Below, piece by piece: positions 1,738 to 20,278 of a DNA stretch of 20,278 bases. Location: positions 1 through 20,278 of the IMG/VR virus record IMGVR_UViG_3300025869_002029, one strand, 5' to 3'. The position numbers and the translations under genes were made by a program. Each line of letters begins with the position of its first letter. The stretch's first letter is position 1. Below the pieces are notes generated by a model. It saw nothing but the letters and a program-made list of their open reading frames with translations. It had not been told where the DNA came from and ran no database searches. Origin of the DNA: a virus.

Positions 1738-2162
1738 TAAGTTCTCTCCTCAATTATTTTTGCTATGGTATTAGTAGTGCTGTAGTCATGATTTCTACTA
1801 TTAAACATTATATCTATTTTTAAATCATCACCCGTAAATGGTTTATCTTTGTGGTCATCTCCTAGTATACGAACATCTATTCTATCACTATTGTAAAATA
1901 GATAATCATATAAACCTTCCTCGCCATCGTAAAGAAAAGCCTCATCCACAAACTTACAAGCTTCAACCATCAACAACCTTTCCTTTGGTGTCCATATAGG
2001 TTCATTCTTTTCTCTACCATCTGGCTGTTTAGTCTTAGTTCTATATTCATTGACTGCAACTATTAGATAATCACAATACCTCTTACATTCTTTTAACATC
2101 AATACATGACCTGGATGCATAATATCAAAATAGCCGCTCGTAAATCCTACTATCTTTCTCAA
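1737..2162 (-). CDS. Glycerol-3-phosphate cytidylyltransferase-like nucleotidyltransferase
   Basis: The 141-residue protein is a compact cytidylyltransferase of the TagD/RfaE2-like group, which joins CMP (or AMP) to a phosphorylated small molecule. The signature GYFDIMHPGH lies at residues 10-19, matching the family GxFDxxHxGH nucleotide-binding motif. A second conserved element, NHDYSTT at 124-130, corresponds to the STT segment that contacts the triphosphate. Length fits this family (about 130-160 residues). The start codon is TTG at 2162: it overlaps the upstream stop as TTGA, has gagga about 6 bases upstream, and puts the signature at the expected distance from the N-terminus. It probably activates a polyol or sugar phosphate for the neighbouring transferases. 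The true substrate cannot be read from sequence. Confidence 0.85.
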   Translation of the reverse strand: MRKIVGFTSGYFDIMHPGHVLMLKECKRYCDYLIVAVNEYRTKTKQPDGREKNEPIWTPKERLLMVEACKFVDEAFLYDGEEGLYDYLFYNSDRIDVRILGDDHKDKPFTGDDLKIDIMFNSRNHDYSTTNTIAKIIEERT

Positions 2163-2962: not shown

Positions 2963-3663
2963 TTTTTTCCTGTATGTTTTTCTAAGTAGAAGTAAGAGTT
3001 GTCTCTACAATCACCATCCATATAATTAAATTTTAATTTGTTCTTCCAAGCACAATAATTAAAACTAAGTTGGTCTCTCTTACTACCATACTTAATTTCT
3101 GTCCACCAATCTTCCATAGTTTTTATACAATCTTGTTCATTGTGCTTTCTCAATATAACACCACCTGTTATTAACCCATTTTGTTTTGGGTATTCATCTT
3201 TTACATATCGTTGCATTTGATTTATTATTAGTTCTGGTTTATCTTTGAAATTCAACTCTCCCCTTTCAGGTGTAAGTTTCATATTTTTTTCAGCTAATTG
3301 TAAAATAGTGTTAGCCTCATCGTAAATACAATTTCTTTTATCATAATCTGGCTGCAAATTATGATTATGAAAAGCTATATTAGCATCACTTAAATATTTT
3401 TTTACCAACTCATCTACATTACCTTTGATAATGTAATTACCATCTATATAAATACTAATATCATATTCGCTAAAATATCTATGAGGAAGTATTTTATAAC
3501 GCTTAGCATTTCTCATATTATCATCATACAAAGGTATACTGTTACTTTCACTAAAACATTTAAAATCCCAACCCTTTGGTAAATTTGGTTTTACTACATC
3601 ATCATAATCACCAAATACAGATGTATAAACAATACATTTTGGCATATCAGACTGCTTTACCAT
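2959..3663 (-). CDS. DUF616 (TOD1/MUCI70-like) glycosyltransferase
   Basis: This 234-residue protein matches what I know of the DUF616 family, a GT-A-like group named for plant TOD1/MUCI70 and also found in bacterial polysaccharide clusters. Visible family features are YTSVFGDYDD at 13-22, an NAKRYKILPH segment at 52-61, and SIYIDGN at 70-76 in place of a classical DxD. Two starts are possible: the ATG at 3663, which overlaps the upstream stop, and an in-frame ATG at 3645 (MPKC) just before the first strand. Neither has a clear ribosome site, so coupling to the upstream gene is likely. The sugar and acceptor are unknown. Confidence 0.7.
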   Translation of the reverse strand: MVKQSDMPKCIVYTSVFGDYDDVVKPNLPKGWDFKCFSESNSIPLYDDNMRNAKRYKILPHRYFSEYDISIYIDGNYIIKGNVDELVKKYLSDANIAFHNHNLQPDYDKRNCIYDEANTILQLAEKNMKLTPERGELNFKDKPELIINQMQRYVKDEYPKQNGLITGGVILRKHNEQDCIKTMEDWWTEIKYGSKRDQLSFNYCAWKNKLKFNYMDGDCRDNSYFYLEKHTGKK

Positions 3664-4534
3664 TTAGATAAATTTCACCACGAACAAAATTATGAGCTAT
3701 TGGAAATTGTCTTTGGACTGTATAGACTTTTGAATATCTAGAAACCAATTGAGTTGTTCCACATTGATTTCCAACATTGTACTTGGCTTTACATCTAATA
3801 TAAAGTTGTATTCTAATTGGCATATGCCTCATATCTAAAGCCAGGTTTATGGAATTAAAAGAAGTTTTACTAATTGGCACCGATGACCAATAAAAATGCT
3901 TTAAAGATGGGTCTATGACATCTAACATCAAATTATCATTCTCATAGTCATACCTATCTGATAACAACAAACAACCGAATTTATCATCTGTATATTCTTT
4001 TATAATAGCATCACCTAATTTCTTTTCTTCTTCGCTAAAGTATAATTCAGGAGCAGAGTCTTTACATTCATCTTCTTCAAGTTGCCAAAACTTTAACATC
4101 TGTTCTAACATTGGGATATTTGGATTATCTTTGTTATAAACTCTGTAATGGTCGTGGAATATTTCTCCTTTAACGCTGTTTACAAAACCATCAACATATG
4201 GATTATTCTTAAAAACATTCACGCCGTTTTTAAATGGATTTTTCCAACTACTCCATTCGTCTCCAATATCTCCACATATTTTCTCTTGTAATTTTGCTGT
4301 AGGTACATAAACTTTACAATCAGGATATTTTTGTTTGAGTAATCTTGGCATAGCAGACACTACACCCCAATCTCCAATACCCAAACACATTCTCATAACT
4401 ACAAATATTTTATTGCCAAGATATTCATCAGGTATCCGTAACCCTTCTGATTCTTCAAAACCCAAAACATCAACATCACCAGCTTTATATAACAAATTAT
4501 CGACAATTCTAAAAAATACCATTGGTTCTATCAT
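3647..4534 (-). CDS. GT9 (heptosyltransferase)-like GT-B glycosyltransferase
   Basis: The 295-residue protein contains GIGDWGVVSAMPRLLKQKYP at residues 52-71. This is the glycine-aspartate loop, proline and LKxxxP helix typical of the N-terminal Rossmann domain in GT9 proteins such as ADP-heptose:LPS heptosyltransferases. A second nucleotide-binding half follows: CLLLSDRYDYEND in the middle, then CGTTQLVSRYSKVYTVQ near the C-terminus, where the family has a GxxH/GxxT loop. It is somewhat shorter than full GT9 enzymes (about 320-350), so it may be a trimmed or divergent member. The ATG overlaps the upstream GT2 stop as ATGA, with gagg about 9 bases upstream. The substrate is not predictable. 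Confidence 0.65.
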   Translation of the reverse strand: MIEPMVFFRIVDNLLYKAGDVDVLGFEESEGLRIPDEYLGNKIFVVMRMCLGIGDWGVVSAMPRLLKQKYPDCKVYVPTAKLQEKICGDIGDEWSSWKNPFKNGVNVFKNNPYVDGFVNSVKGEIFHDHYRVYNKDNPNIPMLEQMLKFWQLEEDECKDSAPELYFSEEEKKLGDAIIKEYTDDKFGCLLLSDRYDYENDNLMLDVIDPSLKHFYWSSVPISKTSFNSINLALDMRHMPIRIQLYIRCKAKYNVGNQCGTTQLVSRYSKVYTVQRQFPIAHNFVRGEIYLNGKAV

Positions 4535-5175
4535 AGCTGCCTCACATTCATTTCTTTACTAAAATTCTTATTATAGAACATATTCTGTTTCTCTTGCTTT
4601 TCTATAGTTTTCGGATGATACAAACTCAATTCTTCTTGTGGTGGTAAATGAGCATATGTTTTACAACCTGTAATATATTCATGTAGTGGTCTAGTCCATC
4701 TTATAGATTCAGCCCTTCTGAATACACGAGCTTGATAATCAGGATAGTTTACCCAACCATTGTCTGTAACTCTCCAACCCCATCTTTGTATATGTTCTTC
4801 TTTCATATCTTCAATTGTATTCACTCTTGGTATCCAAATCAAATCAACTTCGTTTATCTTTAATATTTCTTTTAATTGTTTTACTAATATTTCGTTTGGA
4901 TACTCATCAGCATCTATATGAAATACATAATCACCACTACTCTTTTCTATAACTGAATTTTTATGTTCTGCAAAATTACCATCAAGTTTTCTTTTGTAAA
5001 CTATAGCTTTGTTTTCAGATAGATATTCGCCTAAAACAGCTTCTACCCTTTCGTCATCACCATCTACACAAACTACTATCTCATCTTCATCATCTATGTT
5101 CTTACTTAATACTTCTAATAACTTAATCAGTTCTTCAGCTTCATTGTGAACTGTAATGCCATAACTAATTTTCAT
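4531..5175 (-). CDS. GT2 family glycosyltransferase
   Basis: This is a compact 214-residue GT-A enzyme of family 2. The N-terminus SYGITVHNEAEEL (4-16) is the usual first strand and nucleotide-binding loop. VCVDGDDE (35-42) is the second strand acidic motif, and FHIDADEYP at 85-93 holds the DxD metal site. WTRPLHEYI near residue 160 resembles the catalytic-side loop of WaaE/KdtX-like lipopolysaccharide glucosyltransferases. It lacks a membrane segment. The gene overlaps the upstream one by 11 bases. The fold assignment is firm. Specificity is open: this subfamily acts on lipopolysaccharide core in bacteria, but phage members may act on other acceptors. Confidence 0.85.
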   Translation of the reverse strand: MKISYGITVHNEAEELIKLLEVLSKNIDDEDEIVVCVDGDDERVEAVLGEYLSENKAIVYKRKLDGNFAEHKNSVIEKSSGDYVFHIDADEYPNEILVKQLKEILKINEVDLIWIPRVNTIEDMKEEHIQRWGWRVTDNGWVNYPDYQARVFRRAESIRWTRPLHEYITGCKTYAHLPPQEELSLYHPKTIEKQEKQNMFYNKNFSKEMNVRQL

Positions 5176-5605
5176 TCTTTAACTCTTGTACAAATTGTGT
5201 TGGTAATCTTAAATCCTCTAATGTTACTGAACTCTTCCTAGCCTTATCGTAATTATAACTTCTGTAGATACCATATTTGTTTATTATAGTTCTCATCTTT
5301 TTGTAAAGTTGTTTAGCAGTACCATCCAATTGAACTCTGTATATCTTTTTCTTCTCATCTACTATTTCAGTTGTACCTGCTTGTTCTAATAAAGTCTTCA
5401 TCTGTACAAGTGTTGGTTTATTAGATACCTCTAACTGAATACCATGAACTAAATACTGACTTGATTTGTTCTTAGCTCTGTTTCTTAACTTTGGGTCTAA
5501 CACTAAAATAGTTCTACGAAGTTTTCTACCATCTCTATTTTCATAAACGAAAGATACTATATCACCAGGACTAACTTTATTCCAACTATATGGTAGCTTA
5601 GCCAT
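5165..5605 (-). CDS. Unknown protein with a basic beta-barrel-like N-terminal domain
   Basis: I do not recognise a named family for this 146-residue protein. The N-terminal part, with SPGDIVSFVY (12-21) then RTILVLDP (31-38), looks like a small SH3/PemK-like beta barrel that often binds nucleic acid. The rest is rich in lysine and arginine and includes a helical segment around residues 98-112 (KQLYKKMRTIINKYG). It overlaps the upstream zinc-finger gene by 8 bases and the downstream GT2 gene by 11, so it is translated with them. A nucleic-acid-binding role is only an inference from charge and fold impression. Confidence 0.6.
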   Translation of the reverse strand: MAKLPYSWNKVSPGDIVSFVYENRDGRKLRRTILVLDPKLRNRAKNKSSQYLVHGIQLEVSNKPTLVQMKTLLEQAGTTEIVDEKKKIYRVQLDGTAKQLYKKMRTIINKYGIYRSYNYDKARKSSVTLEDLRLPTQFVQELKNEN

Positions 5606-6053
5606 TATCTTTTATAACTCCCATAGCTTGACAAGCATCCATAAATTCAAACTGACCAAACTTTTGTGCATTCTCAACATCCAATCTTTTCTCATGACCA
5701 TCGTATTTTTCTCTATCCTCTTTAGGTATTTCTACCACCCCAGCATAATACCAATGCCAGTTACTGACAGTTCCTTCGGGATATATTATACCTTTTTCTC
5801 CCATATTAATCACAGATGGAAACCAAACGATATCTCGTTCCTTATCAAATATTTTTAAGTCGTTCATCAATTGACTATGACTCTTTGTATATTCTTCTAA
5901 TTTTTCACTATCGAAAGCAAGATAAGAATTAGATGTCATACCACATTGAAAACAGATATAAGATTCAAAAGGCTTACCTTCTACTTCTGTTTTCTCTACA
6001 AAGCAATTACTATGTAAATCTTTACATAAGGGGCAATTTGTTTTTTCTTCCAT
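5598..6053 (-). CDS. Unknown protein with N-terminal CxxC...CxxC zinc finger
   Basis: The 151-residue protein carries two CxxC pairs, C7/C10 and C34/C37 (CPLC and CFQCG), which form a plausible zinc ribbon. The remainder is acidic and rich in tryptophan and tyrosine (for example NWHWYYAGVVEIP), with no motif I can name. The gene starts one base after the stop of the GT-B gene, behind gaagg, and overlaps the next gene. Zinc ribbons of this kind are common in phage accessory proteins that bind nucleic acid or other proteins; which applies here is not visible. Confidence 0.65.
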   Translation of the reverse strand: MEEKTNCPLCKDLHSNCFVEKTEVEGKPFESYICFQCGMTSNSYLAFDSEKLEEYTKSHSQLMNDLKIFDKERDIVWFPSVINMGEKGIIYPEGTVSNWHWYYAGVVEIPKEDREKYDGHEKRLDVENAQKFGQFEFMDACQAMGVIKDNG

Positions 6054-6054
6054 T

Positions 6055-7389
6055 CTATACCTTCTTTAGTTTTGGTAACTTCATCTCAGTTGGTTTGGCA
6101 CTAGATACTTTCTTTAACTTTGGCAACTTTAAGCTAACCGACTTTGGTTGTTCTTCAAATTTAGGTAGATGATTATCTAATATCCTACCAAATTCAGTAG
6201 TCATTTTGTCCATAGTAAAATTAACTCTATTGTGCATAGCCTGTCTTTTGGCTTTCATTGTATATTCTCTATTCTTTTTAAATACATCCATCATAATTTG
6301 TGAAGCGTATTGGTAGTTTGCGGTAAACCATTCAGCACCTTCAACGAATATTTCTTTCGGTAGAGCTGATGGGTGTACTTTAGTTAATGAGCCTGGCAAA
6401 AGAACTGAGTTATTCTTATTAAGAAAATCCTTATGTCCACTCCAATCAGGAGCAATAACTATCTTCTCTGATATACTAGCCTCTAATAAAGGACGACCGA
6501 AACCCTCACCATGCGTAAAACTAACATGCGCTTTTACTTTTGGATGATTATACATCTGATTCATCTCTTCATCAGTTAAATCTCCGTGTAGTAAATAAAC
6601 AGGAGGAAGCTTGCCGCTTACAGTATCTTTAATATCTTTTATCTTCTGCTTTATTTCATTCCTATCTATAATAGAAAAGGTAGCACCACTTGTTTTCATA
6701 ACTAACGCTGGTGGATTAGGTTTGTTCTTAAAAGTTTCTAAGAATGTCTTTAACAACATACCCGTATCTTTTCTATCCTCTCCTAAGTTACCTTGTAGCC
6801 AATGTCCAGTATAAAGAAATGCAAATCTTTCTTTAATTTTATCCATTTCAGCTTTAAGACTATCTGATATTTCTTTTGTCTTCTTATAAATATTTGTGTC
6901 AGCACCTTCAAATAAAACTTCTATTGGTGATGTTACTTTTAACTCACCAGTTTTCTGTTTTGTTTGTTCATTTATTTCCTCATAAGATACTCTTTCAAAT
7001 ATCCCCTTTACAAACTTCGAGGGTACAATGTTCATATTCATTTTGTTCATACCCTGAATCCACTCTACCTTTGGAGCAGTATTTTCAATACCAGCAGTAA
7101 CTCCTATATTATACTTTCCTAATGAACTAAATTCATTTGGTACGCTGATGTGTAGATGAATGTCGGGTTGTCTTTCTAATTTATTATCAGTAATAATTCT
7201 ATCGATTATTATCTTATCATTTGGCTTTTTATCATCAAGCGCATTCATTGGACAATTTCCCCAACGAAGTGAATTAATTTTTATATCAAACTTATCCATA
7301 GATATAAGACTTCTAACTAAATCTCTACTATGAGAACCATATCCACTTCTTGTGGCAACAGGTCCTGTAATTAACATTAATGGTTTCAT
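6055..7389 (-). CDS. GT4-type GT-B glycosyltransferase with C-terminal KLPKLKKV repeats
   Basis: This 444-residue protein has two Rossmann-like halves. The N-terminal half starts LMLITGPVATRSGYGSHSRD, with the glycine-rich acceptor-side loop usual in GT4 enzymes. The C-terminal half contains FTHGEGFGRPLLEA (291-304), the E-x7-E motif that binds the nucleotide-sugar. After the catalytic part (about residue 410) comes a lysine-rich tail carrying the octapeptide KLPKLKKV twice, at 421-428 and 437-444, the second copy being the very C-terminus. The start has aagagg upstream. It may work with the second GT4 gene just upstream. The tail could tether the enzyme to an anionic partner such as DNA or a membrane, which is inference. 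Confidence 0.85.
   Translation of the reverse strand: MKPLMLITGPVATRSGYGSHSRDLVRSLISMDKFDIKINSLRWGNCPMNALDDKKPNDKIIIDRIITDNKLERQPDIHLHISVPNEFSSLGKYNIGVTAGIENTAPKVEWIQGMNKMNMNIVPSKFVKGIFERVSYEEINEQTKQKTGELKVTSPIEVLFEGADTNIYKKTKEISDSLKAEMDKIKERFAFLYTGHWLQGNLGEDRKDTGMLLKTFLETFKNKPNPPALVMKTSGATFSIIDRNEIKQKIKDIKDTVSGKLPPVYLLHGDLTDEEMNQMYNHPKVKAHVSFTHGEGFGRPLLEASISEKIVIAPDWSGHKDFLNKNNSVLLPGSLTKVHPSALPKEIFVEGAEWFTANYQYASQIMMDVFKKNREYTMKAKRQAMHNRVNFTMDKMTTEFGRILDNHLPKFEEQPKSVSLKLPKLKKVSSAKPTEMKLPKLKKV
6058..6129 (-). repeat. Duplicated segment encoding two KLPKLKKV octapeptides
   Basis: Two 24-base units, 6129-6106 and 6081-6058, encode the same eight residues at the end of the GT-B gene and are separated by 24 bases. 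They differ at several third codon positions, which suggests selection on the peptide rather than a very recent DNA duplication. Confidence 0.75.
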
Positions 7390-7398
7390 ATTTACCTC

Positions 7399-7533
7399 TT
7401 AGTTAAATGGGCTTTTTAAAAATTCAATAAATCCATCACGGACTTTTCTCATAAAAATATCCTCAGAACCTCTAAAGTTTCCTACTATATTTCTTCTACG
7501 ATATGTTCTTTTAGTTTTATTTCTTGCTGGCAT
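7399..7533 (-). CDS. Small basic protein, 44 residues, unknown function
   Basis: This ORF fills most of the gap between two glycosyltransferase genes. It starts MPARNKTKRTYRRRN and ends EFLKSPFN, with a strongly basic N-terminal third (several Arg and Lys in the first 14 residues) and a mixed helix-like remainder. Its ATG has taggagaag upstream, a good ribosome site that partly covers the end of the preceding gene. The next gene starts 9 bases after its stop, with its own ribosome site. Translation therefore looks likely. No family is recognised; a short basic peptide could bind DNA, RNA or a partner enzyme. Confidence 0.6.
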   Translation of the reverse strand: MPARNKTKRTYRRRNIVGNFRGSEDIFMRKVRDGFIEFLKSPFN

Positions 7534-7542
7534 ATTCTTCTC

Positions 7543-8940
7543 CTATACTTCGTGCATTGTAAATCGTTTACGTGGTGTCCACTTTTCAAATGCTGTATTC
7601 ATATGACTTACAAAGTTGTTAGACATAGCAGTTGCTGACATCATAGCGTCATCACTCATAACAAATTCATGACCTAACCTACCACACTCTTCTCTTTTTT
7701 CTTTACCCATATCATACCATTCTTTGATGGCATCTGCAAAGTCATCTGAGCGAGGCCTGTCATCATAGATGTATGGTGTAGGTATTGAACCCTGCAAACT
7801 TCTATTAGACGGCCAAATCGGTTTACACCAATCACCCCAAGTCAAATCTTCATTGTCTTTCCATTTCTTATCATCGTGCAATGAATCAATCCAACTGTAG
7901 TCTTCGTAGGTTATGAACTTATCCTTATACTTAAACCCAACTTGGTCTTGTAATCCACCTGTAACAGTAACCGATATCGGTGTTCCACACATCAGAGCCT
8001 CACAAGTGGTTAAACCAAATCCTTCATTGGATGCCATATTAATTTGAACATCTGCTATATTGTACAGATAACATAATTGCTTATCGTCTAATTTTTTATG
8101 TGAAAATATAACATCATAGTTAGGACAAAGCTCTCTGACAACCTCAGGTAAATCTGTACCATTTTCATCACGCGGCTGAGTGTGCATTATGAGAGCACAC
8201 TTATCAGATTGTTCTTTTGGTAACATATCACAGAATTGTTTGTAAGCCATTATCACGTCACCTGGCAACTTTCTTCTGATGTTTCTATTGTTCCAAAATA
8301 CTATAAATTCATAGTCTTTATTTTGGGTTACGTTTCTTTTAAATTGTAGTAAATCACCCCACTCTTTTGTGTTTAATGGTGTGACAGGATAAAAGTTTTT
8401 TTCATTTATACCATGTGGTACGTAAGTATTATCCCAATCTGTTCTTGGTTTTATCTGACAAACGTTATCTACTATATTAACTGTCTGTTTAGATATATTC
8501 ATAATCAAATCACAAGACTCATAGAATGGTTCGTTCCATCTTGGATAAGGCAAGTCATCCCAAATATTATAATAGAATATTGGAGTAGTTTGTCTTAACT
8601 CGTGCTCCATCTGATATAACCATCCCCAAAATCTAGGGTCTGTATAGTGAAGTATAGCATCGACTCCATTTTCTAATTCAATAACCTGTTTGACTATACT
8701 AGAACTACCGTATCCGCTGACTGGATATATTTTAAGATAAGCATCTTCTATACCTGTATCCTTTCTTACAGATTCGTTCATGTCTACAATCTTACCTTCG
8801 TCAGGATGCTTTATAGCACCACCAACTTGTACCCAATCGTATTCTTTCAATGTTCCAAGTACAAATTCACGAGACATCGTACCCACACCGGATGACATTC
8901 TTAAATCATCCGATAATAATAAAATCTTTTTCTTAGCCAT
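7543..8940 (-). CDS. GT4-type GT-B glycosyltransferase
   Basis: The 465-residue protein has an N-terminal Rossmann-like start (KKILLLSDDLRMSSGVGT, 4-21) and the C-terminal donor site ASNEGFGLTTCEALMCGTP at 303-321, a textbook E-x7-E motif of group 1 (GT4) glycosyltransferases. FWNNRNIRRKLPGD around 215-228 matches the conserved basic loop that contacts the sugar-nucleotide phosphates. The C-terminal helix expected to cross back to the first domain is present. It overlaps the upstream small gene by 8 bases, with agagg 8 bases before its ATG. It is probably cytoplasmic. The product cannot be specified. Confidence 0.87.
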   Translation of the reverse strand: MAKKKILLLSDDLRMSSGVGTMSREFVLGTLKEYDWVQVGGAIKHPDEGKIVDMNESVRKDTGIEDAYLKIYPVSGYGSSSIVKQVIELENGVDAILHYTDPRFWGWLYQMEHELRQTTPIFYYNIWDDLPYPRWNEPFYESCDLIMNISKQTVNIVDNVCQIKPRTDWDNTYVPHGINEKNFYPVTPLNTKEWGDLLQFKRNVTQNKDYEFIVFWNNRNIRRKLPGDVIMAYKQFCDMLPKEQSDKCALIMHTQPRDENGTDLPEVVRELCPNYDVIFSHKKLDDKQLCYLYNIADVQINMASNEGFGLTTCEALMCGTPISVTVTGGLQDQVGFKYKDKFITYEDYSWIDSLHDDKKWKDNEDLTWGDWCKPIWPSNRSLQGSIPTPYIYDDRPRSDDFADAIKEWYDMGKEKREECGRLGHEFVMSDDAMMSATAMSNNFVSHMNTAFEKWTPRKRFTMHEV

Positions 8941-11518: not shown

Positions 11519-11548
11519 AATATACACAATTTTATGTATACAAGTCAA
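11519..11548 (-). promoter_or_regulatory. Sigma70-like promoter for the Nmad1-nuclease operon
   Basis: On the minus strand, TTGACT (11548-11543) and TATATT (11524-11519) are separated by 18 bases. The -35 box lies in the last codons of the upstream Mom-like gene. The wider pattern TTGACTTGTATA-N12-TATATT is identical to the one before the DNA polymerase gene. The ATG follows about 24 bases after the -10 box. Confidence 0.7.
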
Positions 11549-12164
11549 GCTTTTTTATTTGTCTTTTAATTTTTTTGTTTAGATAGTATGTATAAATATG
11601 CTTTGGTTTTGTCTTCTTCCAAAATATATTTTCATCACCAGCTTTATATCTACGATTTAGTTCCCTACCATAAGGCCTGTCCAGCTGATTTAAAGACCTA
11701 CTATGCATCTCTTTACCATCCACCATTAGTATTCTACCACCCGATGTCTCACCTAAGTAATCAAAGTTACTAGCTTTATAGATTACGCCAGTATGTCCGT
11801 GGTGTTGGTCAGCAAATGAAACTATAACTTCCATATCTGTAGTTTGTTTCAATAACTTAAATGTTTTTCCTATGAAATAACTTTCTGTATTCTTAGGTGT
11901 ATCATCAATGCAAACTAATCTTCTAAGTTCTAAACACTTATCAGGATTGATAGGATTATACTTAGCTGCTGTAGCTGGCATTGATGGATGAGCATACATC
12001 ATAGCTCCAATCATCTTTGGTATCCCAAAGTTTCCTTCTCTATATAACCCATAGTGATATAAAGACTGAACACCATTTACATTGTGTGAGTAATGGTGCT
12101 TTTCTATGAAACTAACAAGTGACTTTCTAGATATTAACTCTACTGTAAAGTCCTTTACCGACAT
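11532..12164 (-). CDS. Mom-like DNA modification protein (first of two; GNAT-like fold)
   Basis: The 210-residue protein carries the pattern I associate with phage Mu Mom, the GNAT-like enzyme of adenine methylcarbamoylation. Visible elements are HHYSH (23-27), KMIGAMMYAHP (50-60), LELRRLVCID (78-87), SFADQHHGHTGVIYKASN (116-133), HSRS (154-157) and KHIYTYYL (188-195). The same elements recur in the gene at 13850-14617, which strengthens the assignment. Mom acts on double-stranded DNA in the cytoplasm and protects it from restriction. The start overlaps the gp62 stop as TAATG. Mom is normally made late in Mu, but here the gene follows gp62 in a replication operon. Substrate base and added group cannot be read from sequence. 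Confidence 0.75.
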   Translation of the reverse strand: MSVKDFTVELISRKSLVSFIEKHHYSHNVNGVQSLYHYGLYREGNFGIPKMIGAMMYAHPSMPATAAKYNPINPDKCLELRRLVCIDDTPKNTESYFIGKTFKLLKQTTDMEVIVSFADQHHGHTGVIYKASNFDYLGETSGGRILMVDGKEMHSRSLNQLDRPYGRELNRRYKAGDENIFWKKTKPKHIYTYYLNKKIKRQIKKLDLYT

Positions 12165-12640
12165 TATATAAATCCAAGCTTTCTAACTTCTTTTTCTTCA
12201 ATACCATACTTAAATAACATATCAGCTAACTCTGACTGACCACCGGCAGATATTTCGTACATATCTACAGCATCACTAGCCTCTTTCATACTACATTGTA
12301 ATTCTTTAACTACGATTTCGTAAAGCCATTTTGGATACTTCATCTTTTTGTCTCCTTTAATATATCTTAACCATTCTTTTCTTTTTGGTAAGATGCTTGT
12401 ATAAAATTTATATAATTGTTTTGGTTCTAATGGATACTTCTGAATCTCATTTACCAAGTCAATCCAATCAGGCTTCATAGATAGAAACCTATTAACCATA
12501 TAGTTAGACCAAGTCTTCTTATCTTCGTCTGAGATGTCTTCCCAATAATTAGGATTTTGAACCGCTGTTATCTGACTTATGTGGTCGAACAGACTCTTCT
12601 TTTTTACCAAAGATTTTTTCCCACTTTTTGTTCCACTCAT
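12164..12640 (-). CDS. 62: Clamp loader small subunit gp62
   Basis: The 158-residue protein fits T4-type gp62 (187 residues in T4), the small subunit that with four gp44 copies loads the clamp at primer ends. The pattern SLFDHISQIT (16-25), SNYMVNRFLSMKPDWIDLVN and FYTSILPKRKEWLRYIKG is typical of marine T4-like gp62, and its position near gp44 agrees. The start is uncertain. The ATG at 12640 has ggggg only at a loose distance, and its first 30 codons overlap a small ORF in another frame. A TTG at codon 11 (VKKKSLFDHI) would be closer to related proteins. Confidence 0.8.
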   Translation of the reverse strand: MSGTKSGKKSLVKKKSLFDHISQITAVQNPNYWEDISDEDKKTWSNYMVNRFLSMKPDWIDLVNEIQKYPLEPKQLYKFYTSILPKRKEWLRYIKGDKKMKYPKWLYEIVVKELQCSMKEASDAVDMYEISAGGQSELADMLFKYGIEEKEVRKLGFI

Positions 12641-12701: not shown

Positions 12702-12942
12702 TTCCTGTTGGCATCAGTTTATCTGGAACCTTACCACAATTACCACAACTATATACCTGAACTGGAATCATAGCTTCTTGTCCTGTTGGTGACATCAGAG
12801 CTGATAACCTTCTTAGAAAGAAAGCTTGAATGAAAGATGCGTTTCCACAATCGTCACACTTTACCATTTCTGTATCGTTAATGTCTACTTGCGCCTGTGG
12901 TGGTTGTCCACCCTTTATAGGTTTCATTGGTTTTGTACTCAT
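12694..12942 (-). CDS. Small zinc-ribbon protein, 82 residues
   Basis: The protein has two CxxC pairs, C29/C32 (VKCDDCGN) and C66/C69 (YSCGNCGK), separated by a hydrophobic and basic middle (FFLRRLSALMSPTG). This is a classic zinc-ribbon arrangement after a disordered proline-rich N-terminus. Similar small proteins sit in the replication region of marine T4-like phages as far as I recall. The ATG overlaps the gp44 stop as ATGA and has aggag 8 bases upstream. Its place within the clamp-loader block suggests a replication or transcription accessory role, which is inference. Confidence 0.75.
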   Translation of the reverse strand: MSTKPMKPIKGGQPPQAQVDINDTEMVKCDDCGNASFIQAFFLRRLSALMSPTGQEAMIPVQVYSCGNCGKVPDKLMPTGNE

Positions 12943-13862
12943 CTTATTACTCCTAATAATTCTATTACCATAGCCATAGCATTTATCTCTTTATCAACTA
13001 CCTGACCATCCGATAACTGATACTTAGCAATAATCAATATACATTCAGCTATATGTCCTGTACCATATGAATCAACCTCATCATACATTAACTTATATAA
13101 CTCAGCAAAGTCTGTTACCTGACTATTAGCCAATAACTTTCTTACACTTTTAAATGCATCCTTCTTACTTTCCTTACTGATTATCTCTAACAACTTAATT
13201 TTATAATCATTTTCTACTAATGATTGTTTATCTACAATCAACATCCCATCTACGACTTGTCTTTGACAAGAGTTTATCACCCTACGGATATCAGGATAAC
13301 CAGCATTTACCAACCCAGCTATATCATCCATCTTAGAAACTACATCTTCTTCCTTTAATATGTTAGTCATATGGATAGCAACTTCTTTCTTTGATGGTGG
13401 TATTACCTGAAATGATTGACAACGACTTTGTATCGGGTCAATTATTCTTTCTACAAAGTTACAAGTAAGAATGAACCTACAATGTTTAGAGAAAGTCTCC
13501 ATAAGGTTACGTAAAGCGGCTTGAGCGTTAGGTGTGATGTAATCACACTCATCTAAGATTATTATCTTATAATCTTTGAACCCCATAGTCGAAGCGAACC
13601 CACGAACTTTGGTACGGACTGTATCCACACTATTCTCATCAGAGGCGTTAATATACATATAGTCACATTCTATGTTATTAACTAATAACTTAGCGAGAGT
13701 GGTTTTACCTGTACCGGCTTTCCCATATAATAAAAGGTGTGGTAAGTCACCACTCTCAAGATAAACAGATACTTTACTTTTAAGATGTTCATTCCCAATG
13801 TAAGTATCCAACGATGTTGGCCGGTATTTCTCAACCCATAAACTATGCTCTAATCTTTCCAT
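12939..13862 (-). CDS. 44: Clamp loader AAA+ ATPase gp44
   Basis: This 307-residue protein (T4 gp44 has 319) is the ATPase subunit of the clamp loader, which opens the gp45 ring and closes it on DNA. It has the RFC-type N-terminus WVEKYRPTSLDTYIGN (9-24), Walker A GKAGTGKT (47-54), Walker B ILDECD (102-107), sensor 1 TCN (133-135) and the SRC arginine-finger motif at 146-148. The C-terminal collar helices follow. It overlaps the upstream Mom-like gene by 13 bases. All key residues are present, so it should be active. Confidence 0.95.
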   Translation of the reverse strand: MERLEHSLWVEKYRPTSLDTYIGNEHLKSKVSVYLESGDLPHLLLYGKAGTGKTTLAKLLVNNIECDYMYINASDENSVDTVRTKVRGFASTMGFKDYKIIILDECDYITPNAQAALRNLMETFSKHCRFILTCNFVERIIDPIQSRCQSFQVIPPSKKEVAIHMTNILKEEDVVSKMDDIAGLVNAGYPDIRRVINSCQRQVVDGMLIVDKQSLVENDYKIKLLEIISKESKKDAFKSVRKLLANSQVTDFAELYKLMYDEVDSYGTGHIAECILIIAKYQLSDGQVVDKEINAMAMVIELLGVIR

Positions 13863-14617
13863 TTGTTATTTTCTACCTCTATTTTTGTTATCGTAACATC
13901 GTGTTTGTAATCCTTTGGATAGTCCATAACAGGATGTTTCATCATTTTATGAAAGTTTCTATTCTCTCTTTTGTTACCAAGAAAGTAAATGTATCTATGT
14001 TTACTAGCTTCTTTCTTTAACCAAAAGTCTCTACCGATAGCTTTGATTAAGTTCTTAGGAGCAGCAGAACCATACTTAGAATACACGCTTCTACTGTGCA
14101 TCCAATCATCATCTTCACTTACTCTTAATGAGTATGTTGGTGCTAACTGAAAGTCTCCACAACCTTGGTATATCCAATTAGTAGCCTGATAGATAGCACC
14201 ATCGTGACTTTGTTCAGGATCAGCGTAAGATATTAAAACCTTTATGTCTTTAGCATATTGCTTCATCCATTTAAATGAGGCTGAAATAACATGTGACTCT
14301 ATATTCTTACCATAACCATCGTGTATGAATAATCTAGTTAGTTCTAATACATTTTTGTTTTCTATAATCTCTTCTTTGAATATAGAACCAACAACTCTTC
14401 TACCAACTGGAAATCCGTAACAAGCTACACCTATTAGTTTCTCTTCAGTTTCATCGAAGAATTGATGAGGGTTGTCTGTCTTGTAGAAAACTCCTAATGG
14501 ATATCTACAAGACGACAATCTTCCGCTGTAGTGATTTTTCTCAATCATATCTTTAGCCAATGGTTTATATATTGGTCTAATAGTTACTCTTGATTTATCT
14601 ACATACGTTGTTTCCAT
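13850..14617 (-). CDS. Mom-like DNA modification protein (second, divergent copy)
   Basis: The 255-residue protein repeats, in order, the elements of the other Mom-like gene: NHYS (28-31), KLIGVACYGFP (60-70), LELTRLF (91-97), SYADPEQSHDGAIYQATN (130-147), MHSRS (173-177) and KHRYIYFL (206-213). Outside these blocks the two proteins differ strongly. This one has an extra insert around 45-60 and a C-terminal extension of about 40 residues, rich in lysine and histidine. It lies between the clamp and the clamp loader and overlaps both neighbours, starting as TAATG on the gp45 stop with no clear ribosome site. It may modify a different base or target, or be a partner of the first copy. Confidence 0.72.
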   Translation of the reverse strand: METTYVDKSRVTIRPIYKPLAKDMIEKNHYSGRLSSCRYPLGVFYKTDNPHQFFDETEEKLIGVACYGFPVGRRVVGSIFKEEIIENKNVLELTRLFIHDGYGKNIESHVISASFKWMKQYAKDIKVLISYADPEQSHDGAIYQATNWIYQGCGDFQLAPTYSLRVSEDDDWMHSRSVYSKYGSAAPKNLIKAIGRDFWLKKEASKHRYIYFLGNKRENRNFHKMMKHPVMDYPKDYKHDVTITKIEVENNKWKD

Positions 14618-15392: not shown

Positions 15393-17888
15393 TCAAAAAA
15401 ATCTTTCCATAGATGCTTTTTTGTTTACCGGCTCATTCCATTTTAGAGATTCATAGAACATCATTATCTTTTTCTCTAACATCTGAGCATACATCTTTTT
15501 GTAATCTATATTAGCCTTAATAAAATCTATTATTTGTGGTGGGTCTTCATAACCTTTGTAGCCACAGGATAATAATCCCAAATCATTCTGTTTAAGATAT
15601 ACCCATCTTATCTTTTCAGAGTTACTTATCTTCTCATATTTGTTACCGATTCCGAAATGTCTTAGTAAATCGTTATAGGTTAGAGCAGCTTTGATGTGAG
15701 CAGGCGCTCCTTTGGCAAACTTTGTAAACTTACCCTTCTTACCATCTGTATATTTCTTTAGATTATTTATGCCTGTTGGCATCGCTATCCTATCGAAGTC
15801 CAATAGTTTCATAGATTCTTTGAAGTTTATAATTCTCTCATCTATCTTATCCTTTGGTACAGTAGCTAGAATATCTTCCAACACACTCTTCAGTAACTCA
15901 CCCATAGCTTTTGGAAAGTTACTACGAACTAAGTCCAAACCTTTTACATGCAGTTTGTTTACCTTAACTCCATTATCGTTGATTATCTTCATACCATATC
16001 TTTTCTTTACAATAAACAAACCTGATTTAGCTATCAACTCCTGCTTTATCTCAAACCTATGTACATCTAAGTTTAGGAACTTCTTAGCAAAGTAATCATA
16101 AGACTTATTTAGAAACCCCTGCATCTCATCAGCTACATCTAATATCCTCTTACTCATCATAGTCTCGCTATCGAAATCCATAGTAGGAAATCTCTTCTTA
16201 ACTAATGGAAGAGCTGAATAGAATACTGAATCTGTATCGATGTAAATACAATAGTCCTTATCATCTCCTAACTCTTTGTTGTAGAAATGATTACCAATCT
16301 TCTTAGTAAACTTAATTAGTTCTTGACCTGTGAGTGTTGTAGCCTCAGCATTATCTAAGTCATAGAAACGAAATACTGGCAAACCTAACACACCATAGAG
16401 AGAGTTTAGAACCACCTTCTGAATTAACTGACGACTTTTGAAGTATGTATATTTTTCATTGTCACCAGCATCACCAAACTTCTTCATTAACTTTCTATAC
16501 TCCACACGAGTATCGAACCACTTTTCTAGTAGGGCTGGAATCAAACCTTTCTTATCGCTACGATACAGAACACCATTGGATGATACAGAAACTTTATTGT
16601 TCTCAAAGAAATCTTTTAGTTCTGTTTCTGTAAGCTTGCCCATCTCCTTATCATTTTGTACAAGAGTATATGTCTTCTTAGTACCTTTCATAAACTCTTC
16701 TACATCCCAACCTTTTAGTTTACCCATTTTTGTTTCGGGTGATACATTTAGAGACATAATAACAGATGGGTACATAGATGTGATATCTAAATCAAATACC
16801 CAATCGTGTTTACCTCTCTGTGGCGATTGAACATAAGCGCCTGTAAATTTGTCACCATCTTCTTTCATTACTCTAGGTGGTTTGTTTGGTGCAACTATAT
16901 CTAAGTTCTTTAGATAAACTAAGATAGCACCTTCCAAATAACGTGAGGAAAAATAAACATCCTCATAAGGAACATGACCTACGTGACATACACCTCTAGC
17001 CATATCGATAAAGTCTAACTTATCATGCAATCTCTTTACAAGTCTAACATCATGAATGTTATACTCTACAAACTTATCTATATTGTTTTCATATAAGTCG
17101 TTGAGCGTTCCACTATATTCAACTTTCTTTTCACTAAGTTCGTGTTCAGCTACAGCATCTAATCTGTAAGATGATAGCTGGGTATAAGTAAATAATTTAT
17201 ATAGAGCTAAGTAATCTAAACAACTAACACCAGCAAACATATATCTCTTACGATGTTTGTTCCACTTAACTTCTCTTATAGGAGATATTAGTTTAGCTAT
17301 ATCAGAGCCAACAATCTTACAAGCTCTATTGTATACGTAAGGCATATCGAATGAGTCTGAGTTCCAACCTGTAATTATGGTTGGTTTCCAATCTAAATAT
17401 AATAGAAAAAATCTTTGTAGTAAATCAAATTCTGTTTCAAATGATTCTATGATTACATTGTCTTTTGATTTTAAACTGAGTTTCTTCTTCTCATCTAAAA
17501 CCAAGCAATAATACTCGTCCTCTTCTGAGTTATGAACTGCGATAGCAGTTATCTTATCTTTAGAATCTTCGGGATATGGAAAACCATCTGTTACTTCAAC
17601 CTCTATATCGATTGTCATAATACGATGACCATTTGAGAGTTCTTCTGAATCCGTATAGTTGTCTACCAATACACGAGTTTCAGGTGGTACATCTGATTCC
17701 CATAGGTTTGGTGTTTCTGGATCGAATCTGTATACTTTCTTTAACTTATCTCCATACAAAGATATATGAGTACCAGCCCTATCTTTCATATAAGCATATT
17801 TCTTATATGGTAAAGTATAGTAGCCTGTTTCGTCATCCCAAATATGGACTGTTTGTGTTTTATTGTCGTAATATATGTTTTGATACAT
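15393..17888 (-). CDS. 43: Family B replicative DNA polymerase gp43
   Basis: The polymerase has 831 residues (T4 gp43 has 898). All proofreading motifs are visible: Exo I DIE (94-96), Exo II GWNSDSFDMPY (174-184) and Exo III YNIHD (276-280). So are the polymerase motifs: motif A DITSMYPS (368-375), motif B KVVLNSLYG (491-499) and motif C YIDTDS (549-554), with catalytic aspartates D368, D551 and D553. The C-terminus ends SMERFF, close in kind to the clamp-binding tail of T4-like polymerases. It is the first gene after a strong promoter. The ribosome site is weak (aggg about 14 bases before the ATG). No intein or split is present. Confidence 0.97.
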   Translation of the reverse strand: MYQNIYYDNKTQTVHIWDDETGYYTLPYKKYAYMKDRAGTHISLYGDKLKKVYRFDPETPNLWESDVPPETRVLVDNYTDSEELSNGHRIMTIDIEVEVTDGFPYPEDSKDKITAIAVHNSEEDEYYCLVLDEKKKLSLKSKDNVIIESFETEFDLLQRFFLLYLDWKPTIITGWNSDSFDMPYVYNRACKIVGSDIAKLISPIREVKWNKHRKRYMFAGVSCLDYLALYKLFTYTQLSSYRLDAVAEHELSEKKVEYSGTLNDLYENNIDKFVEYNIHDVRLVKRLHDKLDFIDMARGVCHVGHVPYEDVYFSSRYLEGAILVYLKNLDIVAPNKPPRVMKEDGDKFTGAYVQSPQRGKHDWVFDLDITSMYPSVIMSLNVSPETKMGKLKGWDVEEFMKGTKKTYTLVQNDKEMGKLTETELKDFFENNKVSVSSNGVLYRSDKKGLIPALLEKWFDTRVEYRKLMKKFGDAGDNEKYTYFKSRQLIQKVVLNSLYGVLGLPVFRFYDLDNAEATTLTGQELIKFTKKIGNHFYNKELGDDKDYCIYIDTDSVFYSALPLVKKRFPTMDFDSETMMSKRILDVADEMQGFLNKSYDYFAKKFLNLDVHRFEIKQELIAKSGLFIVKKRYGMKIINDNGVKVNKLHVKGLDLVRSNFPKAMGELLKSVLEDILATVPKDKIDERIINFKESMKLLDFDRIAMPTGINNLKKYTDGKKGKFTKFAKGAPAHIKAALTYNDLLRHFGIGNKYEKISNSEKIRWVYLKQNDLGLLSCGYKGYEDPPQIIDFIKANIDYKKMYAQMLEKKIMMFYESLKWNEPVNKKASMERFF

Positions 17889-17920: not shown

Positions 17921-17950
17921 AATATACAACTAAAACCTTATACAAGTCAA
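17921..17950 (-). promoter_or_regulatory. Sigma70-like promoter for the replisome operon
   Basis: On the minus strand TTGACT (17950-17945) is followed after 18 bases by TATATT (17926-17921), about 32 bases before the polymerase ATG. The extended pattern TTGACTTGTATA-N12-TATATT is shared with the promoter at 11519-11548. It lies just downstream of the receptor gene's terminator, so it starts a fresh transcript. Confidence 0.72.
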
Positions 17951-17967: not shown

Positions 17968-17987
17968 GGGGGAGATTGAACTCCCCC
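17968..17987 (-). terminator. Rho-independent terminator of the receptor gene
   Basis: A perfect 7-bp stem (gggggag/ctccccc) with a six-base loop lies 13 bases after the receptor stop codon. On the minus strand it is followed by TTTTAT and preceded by an A-run; read on the plus strand it is followed by a T-run, so it could act in both directions. Confidence 0.8.
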
Positions 17988-17999
17988 ATTTTTTACCAT

Positions 18000-20278
18000 T
18001 TAGAAATTGACTGATAGTCCTACGTTAAAGTGTCTTGGTGTTCCAAGAAATACTTCAGCGTTATGAGCAGCGTGAACTTTGTCACCGAACCCATTGTATT
18101 GGCTATTGTCAACAGCATCTTGAACATAAACATCGTCAAGAGCATTAAAGAGATGACCACTAAGTGTCATATCTAATCCACCAACTGTTGGTAGTTTGTA
18201 AGATAGGTGTAAGTCTAACTTGCCATAAGATGGAGTTTTCCATACTTGAGCTCTGTCAACATCACCACTAACCTCACGAGAATCTGGACTCCAATCAGAA
18301 TAATGATTGTCGTACCATTTGTAAAGACCTTGTATTCTAAGTCCTTCGATTGGTTTAACTGTAAGACCACCAACATAAGATGTCTGTGGCATATCTCCTA
18401 CCTTTAAACCATCAAGAGCGTATTCATACTCTGTAGTAGTCTGTCCTATGACTTGACCATCTTCATTGTACTCCATCTCTTGGTAGTCACCTTTCGCGTC
18501 TCCATCGAACTTCCAAACACCATTACTAATAGCTAAATTTAAGTCAACCATTTCGTGAAGAGCAATCTGTGATTCCACTTCCCAACCTTTATGACTTTGA
18601 TTTACGCCAGTTAGATAAATAATGTCTGTGTCACCTGAATCACCTTGACCTGTGTTTACAGATTTAGTGAGGTTTCTATCTTTCCATTGAGTATTATAAG
18701 AACTCAACTTAACAGAAACTTTATCACTATTGTATTCTCCACCGAACTCATTAGATATGAATTTCTCATTATCAGGATCCTGTGATACAGTTCCATCATA
18801 AGCAATTACATTGTCTAAGATTGGTGGTTTCTGAACGTACCCAATGTTAGCAAATGCTGACATTCTGTCGTCAAGATTATACCTACCACCACCTTTAATC
18901 TGAAAGGTTGTGATATTATCTGCTTCAACAAGTTCCTTCTCTACAGAGAAATGGTCTTTGTAAGTGTAACCGATAGTAGAGATTCCACCCATACCATATA
19001 AGTTAAACTTAGCTACATCGTACTTACCTTGTAAGAAAGCACCAAACCAATCGACAGTCGTAGAATTATGATAAGCAATCTCATCACCTAATCTAACAAC
19101 TTTTCCATCGGGAGCATTCTTATCAGCAAAGTCTACATAGTAGTCTCCACCAAGTAAGTCACGAACTTCTCTAGCGTGTTCAATACCAGCAGTTCTCCAA
19201 TCAATACCAACCTGTAGTTCAAGAGCGTCTGAAACAACATAATTTAACTTTGATATTAAACCATAAGTATCTTGTCGGTTAATTGAGTTACGAAGAATAC
19301 CAGTAGAACGATTTTCGGTATCAGAGAAAGCAGAATCTACATTAGCAGAGTTCTGTGCAATTTCTCCATCCCAATCCCAAGTCCAAGGTGAAGATGAATA
19401 CCATCTTTCTCCCTCAACTGCAGGTTGTCTACTGACACTACCATATGTTCCAGTACCACCACCTGAACCACCACTCCAATAAGCAACAGAACTTAAACTA
19501 AGTTCGTCATTTATATCAAGAAAGTGATTGATGTTAACAAGCGGTTTATGGAAATAGTTCTCTCTTTCATTTAAGAAATCAGAACTAAATCTATCCGTTG
19601 TCTTAGCACCATACATATACCAATACTGTTGTCCTTTATAGTCGGAACTAATTGGAGCAACGTTTTGGTTAAAGAACCTACCAGCTTCAGTTTCAAACTT
19701 GTTACCAGCAACATAAGCAGAATCATCATACCCATCAATACCACCAGCCAACTCTTGAGAGTAAGTAGCAATATTCTGTTTGTATAGATTCTGTCCATGC
19801 CTTTGTGGAGCACCGATAGCATATAACTCAAACCTTTGGTCATCACTTACAGCATATGAACTACCTAAGTAGTATGCCCAAGCATCAGTCCAAGTTCCAT
19901 CAATAAACCCATCACCAGTTTTACGAACTACCGCACCACTTATTGCTAGTTTATCATTGATAAGACCTGAGTTATAGGTTAGAGTGGATTTTTTAAAACC
20001 ACCTTCACCAACTTCTTGTTTGAGTTTACCACCCTTTTCCATAGCTGCAGGATCGGTAATAATATTCATAGTTCCACCTATAGAAGGCGTTGCTAGATTG
20101 ACGGCTGATAGTCCTCTTTGCATCTGAATTGAGGAAGTAGCATCACCTACCCCATCCCAATTAGACCAATAAACCCATCCGTTCTCCATATCATTTTGGG
20201 GAACACCATTAATCATAACAGCAACGTTTCTTTGGTTGAAACCACGAACATTGATACGAGCATCACCCGCACCACCAC
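18000..20278 (-). CDS. TonB-dependent outer-membrane receptor (5' end outside window)
   Basis: About 758 codons are visible, with no start: the frame is open to the edge upstream of the ATG at 20216. The visible N-terminal part is a TonB receptor plug domain, with ARINVRGFNQRNVAVMINGV, then DMENGWVYWSNWDG and the typical NLATPSIGGTMNII segment. The rest is a long beta-barrel region of alternating aromatic and polar strands ending HFNVGLSVNF, with the terminal phenylalanine expected for outer-membrane assembly. Such receptors import siderophores, vitamins or glycans using TonB energy. The VYWSNW plug style recalls Bacteroidota-type receptors. No stop or frameshift breaks it. It is isolated by a terminator. 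Ligand and host of origin are unknown. Confidence 0.9.
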   Translation of the reverse strand, partial: GGAGDARINVRGFNQRNVAVMINGVPQNDMENGWVYWSNWDGVGDATSSIQMQRGLSAVNLATPSIGGTMNIITDPAAMEKGGKLKQEVGEGGFKKSTLTYNSGLINDKLAISGAVVRKTGDGFIDGTWTDAWAYYLGSSYAVSDDQRFELYAIGAPQRHGQNLYKQNIATYSQELAGGIDGYDDSAYVAGNKFETEAGRFFNQNVAPISSDYKGQQYWYMYGAKTTDRFSSDFLNERENYFHKPLVNINHFLDINDELSLSSVAYWSGGSGGGTGTYGSVSRQPAVEGERWYSSSPWTWDWDGEIAQNSANVDSAFSDTENRSTGILRNSINRQDTYGLISKLNYVVSDALELQVGIDWRTAGIEHAREVRDLLGGDYYVDFADKNAPDGKVVRLGDEIAYHNSTTVDWFGAFLQGKYDVAKFNLYGMGGISTIGYTYKDHFSVEKELVEADNITTFQIKGGGRYNLDDRMSAFANIGYVQKPPILDNVIAYDGTVSQDPDNEKFISNEFGGEYNSDKVSVKLSSYNTQWKDRNLTKSVNTGQGDSGDTDIIYLTGVNQSHKGWEVESQIALHEMVDLNLAISNGVWKFDGDAKGDYQEMEYNEDGQVIGQTTTEYEYALDGLKVGDMPQTSYVGGLTVKPIEGLRIQGLYKWYDNHYSDWSPDSREVSGDVDRAQVWKTPSYGKLDLHLSYKLPTVGGLDMTLSGHLFNALDDVYVQDAVDNSQYNGFGDKVHAAHNAEVFLGTPRHFNVGLSVNF

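What the first reader, a model, noticed from the sequence alone, without database searches (positions are those of the whole stretch)
18000..20278. TonB-dependent receptor gene beside the replisome operon of a T4-like phage
An apparently intact receptor reading frame, over 750 codons in the window, lies directly upstream of the polymerase promoter. Outer-membrane receptors are usually host genes and often phage receptors. A phage copy could boost nutrient uptake during infection, replace or mask the host receptor to block superinfection, or change host uptake range.
Basis: partly seen in the sequence, partly recalled or inferred. Interest (0 to 1): 0.82.

Follow-up and report, generated by a model that had tools for sequence, protein, structure and literature searches.

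The report
Phage-carried outer-membrane nutrient receptor gene
A large family of uncultured T4-like viruses, probably of the ocean bacteria called SAR406, carries an intact gene for a bacterial nutrient-uptake receptor, led by a previously uncatalogued folded RNA, which suggests that these viruses control what their host takes in during infection.

Summary
Window 18000-20276 (-) encodes the last 758 codons of a TonB-dependent receptor (TBDR), separated by a terminator from a T4-type polB operon. It is not a chimera: 327 IMG/VR stretches encode close relatives, and the 80 best come from 70 datasets with the same neighbourhood. Complete copies (907-934 aa) have signal peptide, CarboxypepD-like domain, TonB box, plug and barrel. 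They evolve under purifying selection (dN/dS about 0.13); the TonB box core is invariant in all 41 viral sequences examined. The viral receptors form one clade inside Fidelibacterota (SAR406). The gene follows a B12-dependent ribonucleotide reductase (nrdJ) in 171 of 177 loci. Aligned leaders all hold a 34-nt H-type pseudoknot, supported by compensatory changes, with no Rfam match. Related phages that lack the receptor have nrdJ directly beside polB. Eight of 19 long receptor-bearing contigs also encode a secreted, stand-alone TonB C-terminal domain.

Most likely it is an auxiliary uptake receptor working with host TonB; receptor shut-down is the main rival. Adjacency to nrdJ suggests cobalamin, but the SAR406 B12 riboswitch controls a different, BtuB-like receptor, so the substrate is open. 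Phage TBDRs have been noted before; this conserved receptor-plus-RNA cassette I did not find described.

The parts
18000..20276 (-). TonB-dependent receptor gene, 758 codons in the window, 5' end cut by the contig edge (about 150 codons missing: signal peptide, CarboxypepD_reg-like domain, TonB box)
   Evidence: ORF; Plug PF07715 E=6.7e-6; 78-90% identical to 80 viral loci; 65-67% to the closest SAR406 genes
20070..20276 (-). C-terminal part of the plug domain (profile positions 41-107)
   Evidence: Pfam match to residues 1-69; the plug is the most conserved part of the protein, 82% of columns invariant in 28 viral sequences
18003..20069 (-). beta-barrel of the receptor with extracellular loops
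   Evidence: AlphaFold2 model of the full-length relative L002, pLDDT 84.6; VIA-align Z 33-41 to Fiu, BtuB, FecA, FhuA
17968..17987 (.). bidirectional intrinsic terminator separating receptor gene and polB operon
   Evidence: 5 terminator-like matches versus 0.2 expected
17921..17950 (-). candidate polB promoter, TTGACT-18-TATATT (weak evidence)
   Evidence: 10 of 12 consensus positions, but such matches are not above chance in this stretch; a TTGACT element is also present in the nrdJ-polB intergenic sequence of several receptor-less phages
15393..17888 (-). T4-type family B DNA polymerase (gp43-like)
   Evidence: phrog_262 E=2e-185; PF00136
14617..15333 (-). sliding clamp (gp45-like)
   Evidence: phrog_223 E=4e-12
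12939..13862 (-). clamp-loader large subunit (gp44-like)
   Evidence: phrog_168 E=5e-84
12164..12640 (-). clamp-loader small subunit (gp62-like)
   Evidence: phrog_225 E=1e-13

Best explanation
A host-derived outer-membrane transporter kept by T4-like phages as an auxiliary metabolic gene. Shown: one viral clade captured from the SAR406 lineage; a complete receptor with signal peptide, invariant TonB box, plug and barrel; strong purifying selection including the extracellular loops; a fixed place downstream of nrdJ, and upstream of polB, in nearly all relatives; a private pseudoknot leader before the gene; loss of the receptor unit leaves nrdJ beside polB. Inferred: the gene is expressed with the replication genes; the pseudoknot tunes its translation or mRNA stability, as a ligand-sensing or protein-binding element; the protein is exported, inserts in the host outer membrane, couples through its TonB box to the host TonB-ExbBD complex and keeps or increases import of one scarce substrate while the host's own gene is shut off. 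Substrate unresolved: cobalamin for the neighbouring B12-dependent ribonucleotide reductase, or an iron or other chelate.
For: Full-length ORFs with signal peptide, nearly all behind a Shine-Dalgarno, in 71 viral loci. CarboxypepD_reg_2 + Plug domains. Receptor fold, Z 33-41 to siderophore and B12 transporters. Median dN/dS 0.13; loops 0.14, plug 0.06; TonB box core EVLASRA 100% identical in 41 viral sequences; viral loops more conserved (0.83) than those of SAR406 homologues (0.71). Single viral clade nested in Fidelibacterota, support 100 for the clade. nrdJ (TIGR02505, 372 bits over cutoff 340) directly upstream in 170 of 177 loci, plus L170 where nrdJ carries a large insert. No class I RNR small subunit in 28 phage records. 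Pseudoknot: 99.2% of cells paired, 37 double changes versus 8.3 in shuffles; 180 of 184 motif matches are followed by the receptor, and of the other four three run off the contig and one is chance.
Against: No transport, expression or localisation data. The SAR406 cobalamin riboswitch (one in each of 16 of 20 genomes) lies before a different, BtuB-like receptor, about 25% identical or less to this family, in the genomes where the gene could be read, which weighs against B12. No cobalamin riboswitch near 22 bacterial family members. In some divergent phages (L176, L202, L255, L269) the receptor with its pseudoknot lies elsewhere, after a membrane-protein gene, so the nrdJ link is not obligatory. 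Some phages carry a secreted TonB C-terminal domain that should hinder, not help, TonB-driven import. Host assignment rests on gene phylogeny only: no phage of this group in 245 Fidelibacterota genomes.
Confidence: 0.6

Rival explanations
1. Receptor control or superinfection exclusion: the phage receptor replaces or dilutes the host receptor used by competing phages, and in phages that have it the secreted TonB C-terminal domain occupies TonB boxes so that TonB-dependent phages and toxins cannot enter.
For: 8 of 19 receptor-bearing phage records of 50-165 kb also encode a signal-peptide + TonB_C protein of about 105-115 aa without TM anchor or Pro-rich linker; 54 viral loci in all; predicted fold matches receptor-bound TonB CTD (6i97_D, Z 11.6). 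A free periplasmic TonB domain is known to inhibit TonB-dependent import in E. coli (own knowledge, Howard et al. 2001; paper not held).
Against: Extracellular loops are conserved, not diversified, unlike an arms-race surface. The TonB box is invariant, needless for a mere decoy. The TonB-domain gene and the receptor do not always co-occur. SAR406 genomes also hold a few short TonB_C proteins, so the architecture is not unique to phages.
Confidence: 0.2
2. Specifically a cobalamin importer that feeds the phage's adenosylcobalamin-dependent ribonucleotide reductase next door (a more specific version of the best explanation).
For: nrdJ lies immediately upstream in 171 of 177 loci; no class I RNR small subunit found in 28 records; BtuB is among the best structural matches (Z 39.4, rmsd 2.7), but siderophore receptors score as high.
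Against: In SAR406 the B12 riboswitch controls another receptor family. Receptor-less relatives also have nrdJ, so B12 need does not predict the gene. nrdJ and polB belong to the same replication cluster anyway, so adjacency may be passive.
Confidence: 0.2
3. Assembly chimera or host DNA wrongly joined to a phage contig.
For: Higher GC (38-40% against about 33%) across the receptor gene.
Against: The same junction in contigs from many of 70 datasets; phage-private leader RNA; viral clade separate from bacterial genes except one long-branch MAG gene.
Confidence: 0.01
4. Hitch-hiking cargo: a mobile receptor gene with no lasting benefit to the phage.
For: Patchy in phages with about 62% identical polB; receptor identity does not track polB identity (rho 0.22); a deletion scar in L306.
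Against: dN/dS about 0.13 over long divergence; the 80 best loci all give one open frame over the matched length, with no broken copy among them.
Confidence: 0.05

Closest known systems
Host-derived auxiliary metabolic genes of T4-like marine phages (psbA, pstS type; own knowledge)
   Same: Captured from the host lineage, complete, under purifying selection, probably recombining among phages, conserved place
   Different: Encodes an outer-membrane active transporter rather than a photosystem, metabolic or periplasmic binding protein, and comes with its own phage-specific RNA leader
Fidelibacterota (SAR406) TonB-dependent receptors with CarboxypepD_reg-like N-terminal domain
   Same: Same architecture, mostly 57-67% identity, same TonB box; source of the viral clade
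   Different: Bacterial genes lie beside dnaG, cvpA, lon and similar genes and lack the pseudoknot
Virus-encoded TBDR/plug domains reported in gut Bacteroides and Alistipes viruses (PMC8857322) and an annotated TBDR in pelagiphage Skadi (PMC10504331)
   Same: Phage genomes with a receptor-like gene
   Different: Those reports give a domain count or a single annotation, read as entry receptor or as a hint of which receptor is used. Only four records in 50,697 phage genomes resemble the present family, at about 30% identity or less
BFVD A0A8D9FQQ5, 'TonB-dependent receptor SusC', uncultured marine phage; phrog_5687 (unknown function)
   Same: Viral proteins with receptor fold or plug-domain similarity
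   Different: 13% identity to the BFVD protein; only a 41-bit match over the plug to phrog_5687
T5 Llp, a phage lipoprotein that blocks FhuA (own knowledge; complex 8a60 appears)
   Same: Small secreted phage protein acting on a TonB-dependent receptor, the possible parallel to the phage TonB domain
   Different: Llp is a lipoprotein; the protein here is a TonB C-terminal domain
H-type pseudoknot leaders: T4 gene 32 operator, preQ1-I and SAM-II riboswitches (own knowledge)
   Same: Short pseudoknot in a 5' leader
   Different: No Rfam family matched; precedes only the phage receptor gene

Membership tests
TonB-dependent receptor/transporter | Plug domain PF07715 | tested here: met
   Over the curated cut-off in the window protein and in full-length relatives
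TonB-dependent receptor/transporter | 22-strand outer-membrane barrel with internal plug | tested here: met
   AlphaFold2 model pLDDT 84.6, pTM 0.78; Z 33-41 to solved TonB-dependent transporters over residues 106-912; strands were not counted one by one
TonB-dependent receptor/transporter | TonB box near the N-terminus | tested here: met
   SALEVLASRA, core EVLASRA 100% in 41 viral sequences; assigned by position and by analogy to BtuB, not by experiment; lies upstream of the window
TonB-dependent receptor/transporter | Signal peptide | tested here: met
   Hydrophobic N-terminus, usually ending A|Q, in 71 loci; judged by a simple script and by eye, no predictor run
TonB-dependent receptor/transporter | TonB-driven substrate import | not testable with these tools
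   -
SusC/RagA (TIGR04056) | Curated score of 368 bits over the whole protein | tested here: not met
   53 bits, N-terminal part only; no SusD-like gene was recognised beside the gene either (by inspection)
BtuB cobalamin transporter | B12 riboswitch control of the gene or its bacterial relatives | tested here: not met
   RF00174 absent from 22 bacterial family loci, and in SAR406 placed before another receptor family
BtuB cobalamin transporter | Cobalamin binding and transport | not testable with these tools
   -
T4-like phage | polB/gp45/gp44/gp62 gene set and gp23 capsid | tested here: met
   gp23 PF07068 in G001 and G013, not found in six fragmentary records
Known riboswitch or leader RNA family (Rfam 15) | Match to any covariance model | tested here: not met
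   No match at gathering threshold over the element in 7 loci and no relevant match at E<=5 on a 318-base stretch; covariance models do not score pseudoknot pairs, so this test is weak
TonB protein (phage gene in related contigs) | C-terminal domain PF03544 | tested here: met
   35-50 bits against a 24.6 cut-off; fold Z 11.6 to TonB CTD
TonB protein (phage gene in related contigs) | N-terminal membrane anchor and Pro-rich periplasm-spanning linker | tested here: not met
   Phage proteins are signal peptide + about 20 aa + CTD; most SAR406 TonBs found are 205-230 aa, those read have anchor and linker

The most novel reading that the evidence does not exclude
These phages run their own TonB subsystem. 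A pseudoknot RNA that senses a nutrient or a phage protein sets the level of a phage-encoded outer-membrane receptor, while in part of the group a secreted phage TonB C-terminal domain jams the host's receptors. The infected cell is closed to TonB-dependent competitors yet keeps one chosen import route.
Probability: 0.15. Interest if true: 0.92.

Novelty: new variant of a known kind. Interest (0 to 1): 0.74.

Why it matters
Phages are known to use TonB-dependent receptors as doors; here a whole phage group carries one. If it works as a transporter, viruses steer micronutrient import of infected SAR406 cells, a largely uncultured ocean lineage, and a viral gene would count in vitamin or trace-metal budgets. 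The private pseudoknot is a ready candidate for a new phage regulatory RNA family. The secreted TonB domain would be a new way to shut receptors from the periplasm. Each part can be tested in laboratory strains without the phage or its host in culture.

Tried and rejected
Chimera or host DNA: rejected by the repeated junction across datasets. SusC/SusD polysaccharide receptor: the TIGR04056 match covers only the N-terminus and no SusD-like neighbour was seen. Cobalamin by guilt of association with nrdJ looked compelling, then the host B12 riboswitch was found before another, BtuB-like receptor, so it is kept as a rival only. Substrate from host gene neighbourhood: neighbours are housekeeping genes (dnaG, cvpA, lon and others, named from their sequences), no clue. 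Substrate from structure: siderophore, haem, copper, PQQ and B12 transporters all match about equally. The pseudoknot as an nrdJ element: rejected, because in divergent phages it travels with the receptor to another place, and the nrdJ-polB junctions without receptor lack it. The pseudoknot as inherited from the host: no enrichment over reversed-pattern controls in 20 SAR406 genomes. Direct host link through phage polB in 245 Fidelibacterota genomes: only three genomes with distant matches at about 34%. An FMN riboswitch upstream of a receptor pair in one Bacteroidales genome (L140) precedes a 32% identical paralogue and was not generalised. Literature: ten full-text searches of open-access PMC found no account of this family; subscription papers and preprints were not searchable.

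Full report
Observation. The minus-strand frame 20276-18000 is open for 758 codons up to the contig edge and carries the C-terminal part of a TonB plug domain. Behind its stop codon are a strong bidirectional terminator (17968-17987) and a promoter-like TTGACT-18-TATATT (promoter matches are not above chance in that stretch), then polB, clamp, gp44-like and gp62-like genes. GC is 38-40% in the receptor against about 33% elsewhere. The record is a 20,278-bp IMG/VR virus record.

It is real and widespread. A protein scan of IMG/VR found 327 stretches that encode relatives; the 80 best are 78-90% identical over essentially the whole window protein and come from 70 datasets. In 73 of them polB lies downstream on the same contig; 38 of these have a gap under 160 bp, about 115 bp in the nearest relatives. 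A reverse scan with polB gives the receptor upstream in 49 of 80 loci; among phages with polB at least 81% identical I saw only two receptor-less loci (L306 and L299), while at about 62% polB identity presence is patchy.

What the whole gene looks like. In 71 of the relatives the start of the protein could be placed: signal peptide usually ending A|Q, CarboxypepD_reg-like domain, TonB box, plug, barrel; 907-934 aa. An AlphaFold2 model of L002 built on 98 viral and bacterial sequences (pLDDT 84.6, pTM 0.78) matches solved TonB-dependent transporters across residues 106-912 with Z 33-41. Pairwise dN/dS has a median of 0.13; plug 0.06, long loops 0.14, N-terminal domain 0.34. The TonB box core EVLASRA is identical in all 41 viral sequences, and the loops are better conserved among viruses than among SAR406 homologues. 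This is the pattern of a working transporter, not of a decoy whose surface diversifies.

Origin. The closest bacterial homologues are Fidelibacterota (SAR406/Marinimicrobia), up to 67%; other FCB phyla follow at 44-51%. In a quick maximum-likelihood tree the 41 viral sequences form one clade (support 100) nested within Fidelibacterota, with one SAR406 MAG gene (L082, long branch, bacterial flanks) inside it. So one capture from the SAR406 lineage is the simplest reading; L082 may be a return transfer or a misplaced long branch. That SAR406 cells are the hosts, and that the phages are marine, is inferred from this; polB of this group was not found in 245 Fidelibacterota genomes, and the sample habitats were not shown to me. 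No cultured phage has the gene: the best matches among 50,697 phage records are at 30% identity, and the nearest cultured polB (Microcystis phage Mel-JY01, 46%) has no annotated receptor or RNR beside it.

Neighbourhood. The gene upstream is an adenosylcobalamin-dependent ribonucleoside-triphosphate reductase (TIGR02505, over cutoff; best PDB match 1l1l, E=4e-101). It is directly upstream, median 84 nt, in 170 of 177 testable loci, plus L170, where nrdJ has an intein-sized insert. No class I small subunit was found in 28 phage records. Receptor-less relatives have nrdJ directly before polB, and in L306 the nrdJ tail is fused to the last codons of the receptor, a deletion scar. In four divergent phages (L176, L202, L255, L269) the receptor lies elsewhere, after a membrane-protein gene. 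The receptor's identity to the window copy does not track that of polB (rho 0.22; 53 loci have polB at 65% or less but receptor 78-86%), which points to exchange of alleles as well as slow evolution; the search favoured similar receptors, so this is only suggestive.

A private RNA. The aligned leaders contain ACAGG-CAGnn-GACACA-CCTGT-nnAAAAA-TGTGTC, or close variants, between nrdJ and the Shine-Dalgarno: two interleaved stems of 5 and 6 pairs, an H-type pseudoknot with A-rich third loop. On 88 distinct sequences 99.2% of cells pair, with 37 double changes against 8.3 in shuffles, and slid registers fail. An independent pattern scan of IMG/VR and a structure-only scan of 5.1 Mb both find it before the receptor: 180 of 184 motif matches, where three of the other four run off the contig and one is chance. 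It is not found in the 80 bacterial loci nor, above reversed-pattern controls, in 20 SAR406 genomes, and has no Rfam match.

A second TonB part. 8 of 19 receptor-bearing phage records of 50-165 kb encode a small TonB_C protein; 54 viral loci have one. It consists of a signal peptide, about 20 residues and the TonB C-terminal domain, without a further anchor or linker. Its predicted fold matches receptor-bound TonB CTD best (Z 11.6). SAR406 TonBs mostly have anchor and linker, though short forms occur there too. A free periplasmic TonB domain is dominant-negative in E. coli (own knowledge; the paper is not held), so this gene hints at receptor shut-down. It was not found in the 130-kb and 165-kb relatives, so it is not an obligate partner.

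Substrate. nrdJ adjacency suggests B12. But each of 16 SAR406 genomes has one cobalamin riboswitch, and where the downstream gene could be read it is a BtuB-like receptor of another family, about 25% identical; no cobalamin riboswitch was seen near 22 bacterial family members. Structure does not discriminate. I leave the substrate open.

Verdict. Shown: the gene, its viral residence, completeness in relatives, selection, origin, neighbourhood and leader RNA. Inferred: expression during infection, outer-membrane insertion, TonB-driven import, control by the pseudoknot. Phage TBDR domains have been noticed before (PMC8857322, PMC10504331), so the kind is known; this conserved receptor-plus-RNA cassette is a new variant of it.

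Noticed in passing
L354 4936-5257, L355 4728-5067, L356 4996-5428 (-), L389 10001-10330 and other viral loci: Phage-encoded secreted TonB C-terminal domain of about 105-115 aa; no relative in 50,697 phage records
   Followed up: partly
upstream of the receptor, e.g. L002 8128-8173, L004 6892-6937, L178 1469-1514: 34-nt H-type pseudoknot with covariation, no Rfam family; candidate new phage regulatory RNA
   Followed up: yes
L306 4300-4560: Natural deletion scar: the nrdJ tail is fused to the last codons of the receptor, ending FNLGLSVNF
   Followed up: yes
L170 9220-12255; L346: nrdJ of about 1011 aa instead of 670: an intein-sized insert in the B12-dependent ribonucleotide reductase
   Followed up: no
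window 11532-12164 and 13850-14617 (-): Two Mom-like DNA modification proteins (PF25680) in the replisome cluster, one between clamp and clamp loader
   Followed up: no
window 2-8940 (-): A run of glycosyltransferase, HAD/nucleotidyltransferase and cytidylyltransferase-like genes beside the replication genes, perhaps for glycosylated DNA or surface sugars
   Followed up: no
L015 2373-2573: manA RNA (RF01745) in a relative, about 7 kb upstream of the receptor
   Followed up: no
L077 12287-12436: Two tRNA genes directly behind the receptor gene
   Followed up: no
L140 4995-5119: FMN riboswitch before a tandem pair of receptors in a Bacteroidales MAG, the second of which belongs to this family: a possible flavin link
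   Followed up: partly
L082 986-3733: SAR406 MAG receptor on a long branch inside the viral clade, with bacterial flanks: possible phage-to-host return transfer
   Followed up: partly
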